The notes under the pieces: model-generated
The model's input: only the letters and a program-made list of their open reading frames with translations
What the model was told of the DNA's origin: nothing
The model's database searches: none
Shown here: positions 22,286 through 25,744 of the stretch, one piece after another
Layout of the letters: each line of letters begins with the position of its first letter
Position numbering within the stretch: position 1 is the first letter of the stretch
From: Halomicrobium urmianum
Lineage (GTDB): Archaea; Halobacteriota; Halobacteria; Halobacteriales; Haloarculaceae
Direction of reading: 5' to 3'
DNA: 64,000 nucleotides
NCBI RefSeq assembly: GCF_020217425.1
Contig: NZ_CP084090.1
Location: 1,612,001 to 1,676,000, forward strand
Translations under genes and position numbers: made by a program

Positions 22286-23857
22286 CTAGTTGTCGAACCG
22301 CGCCTGGACGAACGGCTGGAGGTCCTCGATGTCGCCGAGTCGCGAGTCGGACATGAGGACGGCCTCCGTCTCTTCGAGTGGAACGGAGAGGCTGATCTCC
22401 TTGGTCCGGCCGTACCGGCCCTTCGAGACGACGACGGCGTTGACGATGCCCAGCATGTCCAGTTCGGAGATGAGGTCGGTGACGCGGCGCTGGGTGAGCA
22501 CGTCGGCGTCGATCTCCTCGCAGACGCGCTTGTAGATGTTGTACACCTCGCCGGTGTTGATGTTGTGGACGCCGTTTTTCTCCAGCAGGATGATCGCGAA
22601 CAGGACGATCTTGCTCTGGGTCGGGAGGGTGCGTACTACCTCGACCACCCGGTCGAGTTCGATCTTCTCCTGGGCCTGCCTGACGTGCTTCTCCTCGACG
22701 ACGTCTGTCTGGTCGCGCTCGGCCAGTTCCCCGGCCGTCCGGAGCAGGTCCAGCGCGCGCCGGGCGTCGCCGTGCTCCTGGGCGGCGAAGGCCGCACACA
22801 GGGGGATGACGTCGTCGCTCAGGGCGTCCGACTTGAACGCCACCTCCGAACGGTGCTGGAGGATGTCCCGGAGCTGGTTGGCGTCGTACGGCGGGAAGAC
22901 GATCTCCTCCTCGCCGAGGCTGGACTTGACGCGGGGGTCGAGGAAGTCGGTGAACTTCAGGTCGTTCGAGATGCCGATGATCGAGACGCGGGAGTGCTGA
23001 AGCTCGTTGTTCATCCGCGAGAGGTTGTACAGCGTGTCGTCGCCGGACTTCTCGACGAGCTTGTCGATCTCGTCGAGCATGATGACGACCACGCGCTCGT
23101 GGTAGTCGACCGCGTCGAAGAAGGAGCTGTACACGCGGTCGGTCGGCCATCCCGTCATCGGAACCTCCTCGAAGGACTCGCGGTCCTCGGTCAGCGACTC
23201 GATCTCCTCGTCGATCGCCTCGACGTCGTCGAACTCCGAGTCCGCAAGGGCGTCGGGCGCCTCGTCCGCGCGCTCGCGGAGGCCCTCTAACTCCTCGATC
23301 CGGCCGTCGATGTAGGACTCGTTCTCCTCGATGAACTTGTTGGCCAGCTGGGCGAGCACGCGGTACTGGGTGTCCGTGACCTCGCAGTTGATGTACTCGA
23401 CGGTGCAGGGGACCTCGTACTTCTGGGAAGTGCTCTCCAGTTCCTCGCTGACGAACTTCGCGCTGGCGGTCTTGCCAGTCCCCGTCTTCCCGTAGATCAG
23501 GATGTTCGAGGGCGTGTCCCCCCGGAGGGCGGCGACGAGAATCGTCGCCATGTTGTTGATCTGCTCCTCGCGGTGGGGGAGTTTGTGAGGGGTGTACGAG
23601 GGGCGGAGGACCTCCTTGTTCTCGAAGATCGGTTCCCCGCTCAACAGGTCGTCGAACAGGCCCCGCGAGGCCTCCTCGGAGTCCTCGTCGTCGTCGAGGC
23701 CGTCGAGGACGACGTCGTCGAGATCGGTGTCCAGGGACGGAGTGCCGTCTTCTCCCTCCGTCGAGGTGATGTCAGCGTCCAGATCGTCGTAGCCGTCCGT
23801 CGCGTCGTCGCTCGCGGCGTCGGTGGTACGGTCGGACTCGTCTCCCGCGTCTGTCAT
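22286..23857 (-). CDS. orc1: Orc1/Cdc6 replication initiator
   Basis: A 523-residue AAA+ initiator that binds ORBs and opens the origin. Walker A is GKTGTGKT (123-130) and Walker B is VIMLDEIDK. Sensor regions occur in SIIGISNDLKF and HGDARRALDLL. The C-terminal winged helix (from about residue 400) carries ADVLTQRRVTDLISELDMLG. An unusually acidic N-terminal extension of about 65 residues precedes GLFDDLLSGEPIF. It is transcribed away from the adjacent origin. An ORB lies 10-33 nt upstream of the start, so autoregulation is likely. Confidence 0.95.
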   Translation of the reverse strand: MTDAGDESDRTTDAASDDATDGYDDLDADITSTEGEDGTPSLDTDLDDVVLDGLDDDEDSEEASRGLFDDLLSGEPIFENKEVLRPSYTPHKLPHREEQINNMATILVAALRGDTPSNILIYGKTGTGKTASAKFVSEELESTSQKYEVPCTVEYINCEVTDTQYRVLAQLANKFIEENESYIDGRIEELEGLRERADEAPDALADSEFDDVEAIDEEIESLTEDRESFEEVPMTGWPTDRVYSSFFDAVDYHERVVVIMLDEIDKLVEKSGDDTLYNLSRMNNELQHSRVSIIGISNDLKFTDFLDPRVKSSLGEEEIVFPPYDANQLRDILQHRSEVAFKSDALSDDVIPLCAAFAAQEHGDARRALDLLRTAGELAERDQTDVVEEKHVRQAQEKIELDRVVEVVRTLPTQSKIVLFAIILLEKNGVHNINTGEVYNIYKRVCEEIDADVLTQRRVTDLISELDMLGIVNAVVVSKGRYGRTKEISLSVPLEETEAVLMSDSRLGDIEDLQPFVQARFDN

Positions 23858-24386: not shown

Positions 24387-24419
24387 ACCCCCCCACCCCT
24401 TCGTTTCGGGTGGAGAGCG
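24387..24419 (-). promoter_or_regulatory. Long ORB, left of the unwinding core
   Basis: On the minus strand it reads TCCACCCGAAACGAAGGGG followed by T and a run of seven G. It is the inverted partner of 24663-24695. The G-string points away from the core. Confidence 0.88.
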
Positions 24420-24461
24420 GGAAAGAGGGAGGTGGGGGGTCGCCGAGCGGATTGTTGCTCT

Positions 24462-24596
24462 CTAGCTACGGAAAGGCTTATGCTACCACAGCAAAAACTA
24501 AACCCGCACTAGAGAGAAAGCATTATTTCGTGTGCTAGTAGTGTCCTAGATTAGTCCGAACACTCCGAGAACGACATCTAGAACACCTCTAGCTAG
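24462..24596. other. Origin core with seven CTAG sites
   Basis: CTAG occurs at 24462, 24509, 24535, 24546, 24578, 24589 and 24593. CTCTCTAG (from 24458) and CTAGAGAG (from 24509) form an 8-bp inverted repeat. CTCTAGCTA recurs near both ends. The segment is clearly AT-richer than its surroundings and lies between the two inverted ORBs, so it is the candidate duplex unwinding element. Confidence 0.8.
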
Positions 24597-24662: not shown

Positions 24663-24695
24663 GTTTCCAGTTGAAACGAAGGGGTGGGGGGCTCC
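24663..24695 (+). promoter_or_regulatory. Long ORB, right of the unwinding core
   Basis: It reads GTTTCCAGTTGAAACGAAGG then GGTGGGGGG. It matches the left ORB in inverted orientation; the two are about 245 bp apart, edge to edge. Confidence 0.9.
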
Positions 24696-24773
24696 GGATG
24701 TCTTCCGTGGGTACCGCAGGTCCCGCGAGCCTCTCCACGCACGGTCGCTCGCTCACCGTTTGCACCCATCTAT

Positions 24774-24904
24774 TCACGCTGTCGTTCAAATCTGGTCACG
24801 CTGTCGTTCAGCCTCGTCCCTGGGCTATCGTCGCCATCGTACCCGCTGTCACCCCTTGTGTCCGTTGCTGTCACCGTCATCCCTATCGTGTCCGTTGCTG
24901 TCAC
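24774..24904. repeat. Two sets of short direct repeats in the origin
   Basis: tcacgctgtcgttca occurs at 24774-24788 and 24796-24810 (22-bp period). gtgtccgttgctgtcac occurs at 24858-24874 and 24888-24904 (30-bp period), with the similarity extending a few bases further. They lie right of the ORB/core unit. The first set shares ctgtcgtt-type pyrimidine-rich content with the second. No binding protein is known to me. Confidence 0.8.
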
Positions 24905-25102
24905 TGTCACGTCTGCTGCCATTCCCGTGAGAGAGCCGCGTCGAAACCGCGTCTCGGCCGCGGAATCGAACAGTACGCGGTATCTCTACCGCCGGAATCC
25001 GTCTAGGAAGTCTGACTCGTGTCTGACGTAGGCTTAAGTGAATCGGCGGGTCTTCTACGGGCAAGCCCCCGAACCATCGGGTTCGGGCGGGAGGATACGA
25101 GG

Positions 25103-25744
25103 ATGGGACTGCTCACAAATCTCAGAGATAGCATATCACGCGCGGCATCGACGCTGTTCTCGGAAGAGGACCCCAAGCGAATCGGCATCTACGGCCCGCC
25201 GAACGCGGGGAAGACGACGCTGGCGAACCGGATCGCCCGCGACTGGACCGGCGACGCCGTCGGTCCTGAGAGTCACATTCCACACGAGACGCGGCGCGCG
25301 CGCCGCAAAGAGGACGTGGAGATCGAACGCAACGGCAAGACCGTCAACATCGACATCGTCGACACGCCCGGCGTCACGACGAAGGTCGACTACACGGAGT
25401 TCCTCGACCACGACATGGAGGAGGACGACGCCGTTCGTCGCTCCCGCGAGGCGACGGAGGGCGTCGCCGAGGCGATGCACTGGCTCCGCGAGGACGTCGA
25501 CGGCGTCATCTACGTGCTCGACTCGACGGAGGATCCGTTCACGCAGGTCAACACGATGCTGATCGGCATCATCGAGAGCCAGGACCTGCCGGTGCTGATC
25601 CTCGCGAACAAGATCGACCTCGAGGAGTCGTCGGTCCAGCGGATCAAGAACGCGTTCCCGCAGCACGAGACGATTCCGCTGTCGGCGCTGGAGGGCGACA
25701 ACATGGACGAAGTGTACGACAAGATCGCGGAGTACTTCGGGTGA
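25103..25744 (+). CDS. oapA: Origin-associated Era-like GTPase OapA
   Basis: A 213-residue P-loop GTPase. G1 is GPPNAGKTTL (about residues 31-40), G3 is DTPGV, G4 is NKID, and G5 is probably in IPLSALEGD. It is encoded next to the origin in haloarchaea and was named for that position. Its exact role is not established. ATG 25103 follows gaggatacgagg, which may be a weak ribosome site. It overlaps or nearly abuts oapB (GTGA at 25741-25744). Confidence 0.9.
   Translation: MGLLTNLRDSISRAASTLFSEEDPKRIGIYGPPNAGKTTLANRIARDWTGDAVGPESHIPHETRRARRKEDVEIERNGKTVNIDIVDTPGVTTKVDYTEFLDHDMEEDDAVRRSREATEGVAEAMHWLREDVDGVIYVLDSTEDPFTQVNTMLIGIIESQDLPVLILANKIDLEESSVQRIKNAFPQHETIPLSALEGDNMDEVYDKIAEYFG

What the first reader, a model, noticed from the sequence alone, without database searches (positions are those of the whole stretch)
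24462..24596. Seven CTAG sites clustered in the origin core
CTAG occurs seven times in 135 bp between the two inverted ORBs. By eye there are only about two dozen in the remaining 64 kb, where base composition alone would predict many more. CTAG is known to be depleted in haloarchaeal genomes and to be a target of a haloarchaeal CTAG methyltransferase. Inference: the core may be controlled by CTAG methylation in a way analogous to GATC/SeqA at bacterial oriC, with hemimethylation marking fired origins.
Basis: partly seen in the sequence, partly recalled or inferred. Interest (0 to 1): 0.78.

Follow-up and report, generated by a model that had tools for sequence, protein, structure and literature searches.

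The report
Methylation-site cluster inside archaeal replication origin
The main replication origin of this salt-loving archaeon carries a dense, evolutionarily maintained cluster of the otherwise avoided tetramer CTAG, the target of a DNA methylase that the cell encodes; the general pattern was published in 2016, but how it works is still unknown and can now be tested site by site.

Summary
In detail: seven CTAG lie at 24462-24596, inside the core between the two inverted ORBs of oriC1, against 22 in the rest of the 64 kb. It is not chance or AT-richness: cores hold about 15 CTAG/kb against about 1/kb in GC-matched windows nearby, and CTAG is the most enriched of all tetramers across 72 orthologous cores. 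The genome encodes an m4C CTAG methylase of the MthZI/HVO_0794 family. The pattern is already published (Blow 2016, Fig 6D). What is added here: the CTAGs sit in the ORB-bounded unwinding core. In one large family (code f3, probably Natrialbaceae) they form an array with fixed, helically phased spacing (about 20-21-10-31 bp), nearly unique in each genome. In three f3 genomes the array lies away from oapA, still between ORBs. Genomes without the methylase have 0-1 CTAG in the core, but having the methylase does not guarantee a cluster (Halorussus, Halorubrum), and the association is not significant after phylogenetic correction. A GATC substitute was tested and rejected. Best reading: a selected CTAG array, probably methylated, that tunes origin firing. 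The SeqA-like hemimethylation clock is possible but unsupported.

The parts
22286..23857 (-). orc1/cdc6 initiator gene (523 aa)
   Evidence: NCBIfam NF001625 ORC1-type DNA replication protein, 658 bits; 100% self-match among 12 orc loci in the genome
24390..24407 (-). left ORB core (GAAACGAAGGGGTGGGGG on the - strand)
   Evidence: 18/18 match to the ORB core; inverted pair conserved in 72 orthologous loci
24428..24440 (+). inner G-rich repeat (GGAGGTGGGGGGT), like element III of H. hispanica oriC1
   Evidence: sequence; comparison with PMC3936714
24462..24465 (.). CTAG site 1
24470..24508 (+). conserved promoter-like block: BRE/TATA-like GGAAAGGCTTATG, then CCGCA 26 bp downstream
   Evidence: TATA-like element 26-27 bp before CCGYA in most of 163 cores (105 have a TATA-like element upstream); block visible in alignments
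24492..24591 (.). least stable 100 bp of the origin region (probable unwinding element); overlaps CTAG sites 2-5 and most of site 6
   Evidence: nearest-neighbour stability; only 0.26% of windows in the 64 kb are less stable
24509..24512 (.). CTAG site 2 (CCGCACTAG, among the sites most often shared in the family)
24535..24538 (.). CTAG site 3
24546..24549 (.). CTAG site 4 (11 bp after site 3)
24578..24581 (.). CTAG site 5 (32 bp after site 4)
24589..24592 (.). CTAG site 6
24593..24596 (.). CTAG site 7
24673..24690 (+). right ORB core (extended GTTTCCAGTTGAAACGAAGGGGTGGGGGGCTCC)
   Evidence: 18/18 match; sequence
25103..25744 (+). oapA-type origin-associated GTPase gene (213 aa)
   Evidence: small GTP-binding/Era-like profile matches; orthologue beside orc1 and the ORB pair in most named loci

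Best explanation
This is the AT-rich unwinding core of oriC1. Selection keeps a cluster of CTAG there although CTAG is purged from the rest of the genome. The sites are recognised by the cell's own m4C CTAG methylase (outside the window, chromosome 2404895-2405932). Most likely the methylation state of the array, or a protein that reads CTAG there, tunes when or how readily Orc1/Cdc6 bound at the flanking ORBs can open the core. Shown here: enrichment, confinement to the ORB-bounded core, positional conservation in one family, the array found between ORBs at sites away from oapA, and methylase presence. Inferred: that the sites are methylated in vivo in this organism, that methylation matters for firing, and the direction of the effect.
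For: CTAG is the top tetramer in 72 ORB-bounded cores, 290 observed against 86 expected. 15-18 CTAG/kb in cores below 55% GC against 0.7-1.2/kb in GC-matched windows of the same loci. In family f3, five CTAG positions are fixed to about +-1 bp from the left ORB in over 60% of 34 genomes; no other tetramer has more than two such positions, and those with two overlap CTAG. CTAG tetramers there are 73% identical between pairs of genomes against 13% for other tetramers. f3 spacing 20/22/10/31 is helically phased, R = 0.97, P = 0.003. The spacing trio occurs in 38 of 51 f3 genomes, mostly once per genome and upstream of oapA. In three of them it lies about 98, 226 and 43 kb from oapA, still between inverted ORBs. 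Methylase 50% identical over 93% to the NC_001337 enzyme. All 38 methylase-free cores of family f4 that were examined have 0-1 CTAG.
Against: Methylase presence is not sufficient: Halorussus 0-2, Halogranum rubrum 0, Halorubrum with methylase 0,0,1. Independent contrasts: r = 0.115, p = 0.18. In the window's own family the site positions drift (39% against 19% pairwise identity) and show no helical phase. Literature: no growth defect without the methylase in H. volcanii, and unmethylated CTAGs cluster in low-GC regions of Haloferax lucertense, so the core could be under-methylated.
Confidence: 0.55

Rival explanations
1. CTAG is part of the binding site of an unidentified origin protein (bending or regulatory factor) and methylation is incidental; the helically phased array is its platform.
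For: Fixed helical spacing and the extended motif TTACTAGA in family f3; half of f3 sites carry TACTAG, against 10% outside cores. Not every methylase-bearing genome has the cluster.
Against: In the window's family the flanks of CTAG are unconstrained apart from A/T preference and the spacing is loose, so the conserved unit is just the 4-bp methylase target. Methylase-free genomes keep 0-1 sites.
Confidence: 0.25
2. A SeqA-like clock: newly fired origins are hemimethylated at CTAG, a reader sequesters them, and remethylation licenses the next round.
For: Clustering of a rare methylase target in the core, as GATC in E. coli oriC; spacings of about 1-3 helical turns in family f3, a geometry recalled for SeqA and not tested.
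Against: No reader identified; no conserved neighbour of the methylase gene in ten neighbourhoods. No growth defect in the H. volcanii methylase mutant. oriC1 is readily deleted in H. hispanica.
Confidence: 0.12
3. The clustered m4C acts directly on DNA, lowering or raising the energy needed to melt the unwinding core.
For: The sites overlap the least stable 100 bp of the origin region.
Against: A paper that cites earlier duplex work reports no indication of destabilisation by N4-methylcytidine (PMC4477647); fixed spacing in family f3 is not needed for a bulk melting effect.
Confidence: 0.05
4. No function: CTAG avoidance is merely relaxed in AT-rich noncoding DNA.
For: CTAG depletion is weaker in AT-rich DNA (about 1/kb against 0.1-0.2/kb in GC-rich windows).
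Against: GC-matched controls still leave an excess of more than tenfold; positional conservation.
Confidence: 0.03

Closest known systems
CTAG clusters upstream of orc1/cdc6 in Haloarchaea with an orphan m4C methylase (Blow et al. 2016, PLoS Genet, PMC4752239, Fig 6D)
   Same: Same motif, same place, same methylase class; clusters also near other orc genes of the same genome.
   Different: That work reported motif density over 50-kb regions. Here the sites are placed within the ORB-bounded core, shown to be fixed and helically phased in one family, and shown to lie between ORBs at sites away from oapA. The claimed correlation with the methylase is weaker under phylogenetic control.
Haloarcula hispanica oriC1 (PMC3936714)
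   Same: AT-rich core between two inverted ORBs with halophile G-strings and an inner G-rich repeat, next to the orc1/cdc6 gene.
   Different: CTAG was not among the elements described in the passages read.
Dam/SeqA control of E. coli oriC
   Same: Cluster of a methylase target inside the unwinding region of the origin.
   Different: m4C at CTAG instead of m6A at GATC; motif rare instead of common in the genome; no reader known; mutant without growth defect in H. volcanii.
M.MthZI / HVO_0794 CTAG methylases
   Same: The window genome's methylase is full-length homologous: 50% identity to the NC_001337 enzyme (taken to be the M.MthZI plasmid), with the SPPY motif near the N terminus and DPFLGTGTT near the C terminus.
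   Different: Specificity of this very protein not tested.

Membership tests
Haloarchaeal CTAG cluster at orc1/cdc6 (Blow 2016) | Cluster of CTAG in noncoding DNA upstream of orc1/cdc6 | tested here: met
   7 in 135 bp between orc1 and oapA; other orc genes of the genome have smaller clusters
Haloarchaeal CTAG cluster at orc1/cdc6 (Blow 2016) | CTAG methylase encoded in the genome | tested here: met
   G000:C1:2404895-2405932, 346 aa; 50% identity over 93% to the NC_001337 methylase
Haloarchaeal CTAG cluster at orc1/cdc6 (Blow 2016) | Methylase is orphan (no cognate nuclease) | not tested
   Neighbouring genes are a TFB gene and unrelated ORFs; the genome was not searched for a CTAG nuclease
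Haloarchaeal CTAG cluster at orc1/cdc6 (Blow 2016) | Cluster presence follows methylase presence across genomes | tested here: inconclusive
   Family f4 genus level: mean 1.56 with, 0.37 without, p = 0.003; independent contrasts p = 0.18 and only 4 supported pairs
Haloarchaeal oriC1 | AT-rich core flanked by inverted ORBs with G-string, beside orc1 and oapA | tested here: met
Dam/SeqA-type origin control | Methylase target clustered in the unwinding region | tested here: met
Dam/SeqA-type origin control | Motif GATC with m6A methylase acting at this origin | tested here: not met
   GATC is not enriched in 72 cores: 48 observed against 66 expected
Dam/SeqA-type origin control | SeqA-like reader of hemimethylated sites | not tested
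   No whole-genome search for SeqA was run; no candidate found beside the methylase
Dam/SeqA-type origin control | Hemimethylation delays re-initiation | not testable with these tools
   Needs methylome and replication timing

The most novel reading that the evidence does not exclude
Haloarchaeal oriC1 carries a dedicated CTAG array, helically phased in one large family, that is read by an unknown methylation-sensitive protein: an independently evolved archaeal counterpart of the GATC/SeqA switch using m4C.
Probability: 0.25. Interest if true: 0.85.

Novelty: new member of a known kind. Interest (0 to 1): 0.5.

Why it matters
The role of the widely conserved haloarchaeal CTAG methylase has been called an open question (PMC6471742). 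Fixing its strongest conserved targets to exact positions inside the unwinding core of the main origin makes the question testable by a handful of point mutations. If methylation controls firing, it would be an origin clock in archaea built on m4C, independent of Dam/SeqA.

Tried and rejected
GATC replacing CTAG in lineages without the CTAG methylase: intergenic GATC looked high but cores show no enrichment; rejected. Helical phasing in the window's family: absent (cos -0.14 at 10.5 bp). Extended binding motif in the window's family: flanks unconstrained apart from A/T preference. Methylase as sufficient cause: rejected by Halorussus, Halogranum rubrum and Halorubrum. Phylogenetically controlled methylase-CTAG link: not significant. 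Rfam hits in the origin: none credible; none at the other CTAG clusters. CdrS as CTAG reader: its motif could not be read from the text, dropped. Conserved partner gene beside the methylase: none; TFB in 3 of 10 neighbourhoods.

Full report
OBSERVATION. CTAG occurs at 24462, 24509, 24535, 24546, 24578, 24589 and 24593 and 22 times elsewhere in the window, where 97 are expected in all from dinucleotide shuffles. All seven lie between two inverted ORB cores, 24390-24407 (-) and 24673-24690 (+), each matching GAAACGAAGGGGTGGGGG exactly. The 265-bp core has 7 against 1.5 expected (P = 5e-5). The shuffle is conservative, because it keeps the CT, TA and AG steps that the sites themselves contribute. 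In the whole genome only ten CTAG triples of this closeness exist; four overlapping ones are here and one lies 0.7 kb upstream of another orc gene. Four 20-kb samples of the chromosome give 0.44 CTAG/kb.

CONTEXT. The cluster lies between an orc1/cdc6 gene (22286-23857, -) and an oapA-type GTPase gene (25103-25744, +). It is the layout of haloarchaeal oriC1, whose minimal form in Haloarcula hispanica is an AT-rich region between two inverted ORBs (PMC3936714). The least stable 100 bp of the origin region start at 24492, so the CTAGs sit on the probable unwinding element. The window genome shares its genus code with a genome whose methylase coordinates equal those found for the Halomicrobium katesii locus L022, so it is probably a Halomicrobium; this is an inference.

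NOT AT-RICHNESS, NOT CHERRY-PICKING. Eighty named oapA loci were fetched and 72 ORB-bounded cores cut out (window included). CTAG is the most enriched of all 136 strand-collapsed tetramers, 290 against 86 expected; GATC is not enriched, 48 against 66. In 135-bp windows of equal GC in the same loci, control density is 0.7-1.2 per kb below 55% GC, against 15-18 per kb in the cores.

LINEAGES. Family f3 (code only; probably Natrialbaceae, an inference): 36 cores, median 6 CTAG, core about 307 bp. Family f2 (probably Halobacteriaceae, an inference): 16 cores, median 3, core about 205 bp. Family f4 (contains Halorubrum and Halopenitus, by matching coordinates): 1.54 on average with the methylase and 0.21 without. 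Halorussus has 0-2 despite the methylase.

A FIXED ARRAY IN FAMILY f3. Without any alignment, five CTAG positions (91, 111, 133, 143 and 174 bp after the left ORB, +-1) are each shared by more than 60% of 34 genomes. No other tetramer has more than two such positions, and the ones with two overlap CTAG. Pairwise identity of CTAG tetramers is 0.73 against 0.13 for other tetramers. The offsets fit a 10.4-10.5 bp helical repeat with R = 0.97 (P = 0.003 against random interior positions). This is one inherited arrangement, not many independent ones. The pattern CTAG-N6-7-CTAG-N27-28-CTAG occurs in 38 of 51 f3 genomes, mostly once per genome and upstream of oapA. In G119, G144 and G145 it lies about 98, 226 and 43 kb from oapA, each time between inverted ORBs; G119 also has orc1 beside it, while no orc1 was found within the fetched 5-6 kb of the other two. 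So the array belongs to the ORB pair, not to the gene interval. The window shows a similar trio (24535, 24546, 24578; spacings 11 and 32), but its own family conserves site positions only loosely (0.39 against 0.19) and shows no helical phase.

THE METHYLASE. The genome encodes a 346-aa beta-type N4-cytosine methylase (chromosome 2404895-2405932), 50% identical over 93% to the methylase on NC_001337. I take this to be the Methanothermobacter plasmid that carries the characterised CTAG enzyme M.MthZI, to which HVO_0794 of Haloferax volcanii is also homologous; identifying the plasmid with M.MthZI is from memory. It is present in 197 of 232 sampled genomes of the class; the 20 genomes listed without it are all in family f4.

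HOW STRONG IS THE METHYLASE LINK. No methylase-free core has more than one CTAG, and within f4 genera with the methylase exceed genera without it (p = 0.003; a few genera may be counted twice because named and coded genomes could not be matched). But on an Orc1 tree of 134 loci independent contrasts give r = 0.115, p = 0.18, and only four supported independent pairs exist. Necessity is therefore plausible, sufficiency is excluded, and causality is open.

PRIOR KNOWLEDGE. Blow et al. 2016 reported CTAG clusters upstream of orc1/cdc6 genes in Haloarchaea, correlated with the orphan methylase, and proposed a role in replication (PMC4752239). Ouellette et al. 2018 found raised CTAG density only at oriC2 of H. 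volcanii and no growth defect of the deletion strain (PMC5867850). Fullmer et al. 2019 leave the role of CTAG methylation open (PMC6471742). Two of 5.39 million open papers hold CTAG, replication origin, haloarchaea and ORB together; the one whose passages were read, PMC3119063, does not describe the array, the other, PMC2841640, was not opened. Subscription papers were not searchable.

MECHANISM. Shown: selection on CTAG inside the unwinding core, and its link to the ORB pair. Inferred: methylation at these sites and an effect on firing. I put 0.55 on a methylation- or CTAG-reader-dependent tuning of initiation in general, 0.25 on a site for a protein indifferent to methylation, and 0.12 on the specific SeqA-like hemimethylation clock. 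A pure melting effect is unlikely, since N4-methylcytidine is reported not to destabilise duplexes notably (PMC4477647).

Noticed in passing
window 24470-24508: A promoter-like block inside the origin core: a TATA-like element 26-27 bp before CCGYA, conserved in most orthologous cores and pointing towards oapA although neither gene starts nearby; in Halopenitus (L057, L061) it appears inverted by eye. A transcript from the unwinding element is a possibility.
   Followed up: partly
L135, L136, L141, L143, L175, L178 and other Halorubrum loci: Many Halorubrum genomes, including five of the eight with the CTAG methylase, have no ORB pair within 3.5 kb upstream of oapA: oriC1 seems lost or moved in part of the genus.
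   Followed up: no
L286 (G144) and L287 (G145): ORB-flanked CTAG arrays with no orc1 gene within the fetched 5-6 kb and no oapA nearby: possible origins detached from their initiator gene.
   Followed up: partly
L126 (genome C1:1100914-1101048) and L128 (C1:1172306-1172440): Two other dense CTAG clusters (5 in 135 bp) in the window's genome, not found near an orc gene; function unknown.
   Followed up: partly
L115, L116, L117, L120, L122: Smaller CTAG groups (2-6) within about 1 kb upstream of other orc genes of the same genome.
   Followed up: partly
L289, L292, L298: The CTAG methylase gene lies next to a transcription factor B gene in three of ten genomes from three families.
   Followed up: no
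window 24768-24910: Short direct repeats (a 22-bp unit about GTCACGCTGTCGTTCA, then GTCCGTTGCTGTCAC) between the right ORB and oapA.
   Followed up: no
L074, L085: CTAG methylase matches split in two overlapping pieces in the genomes of Halobaculum litoreum and Halobellus clavatus, suggesting frameshifted genes or assembly errors.
   Followed up: no
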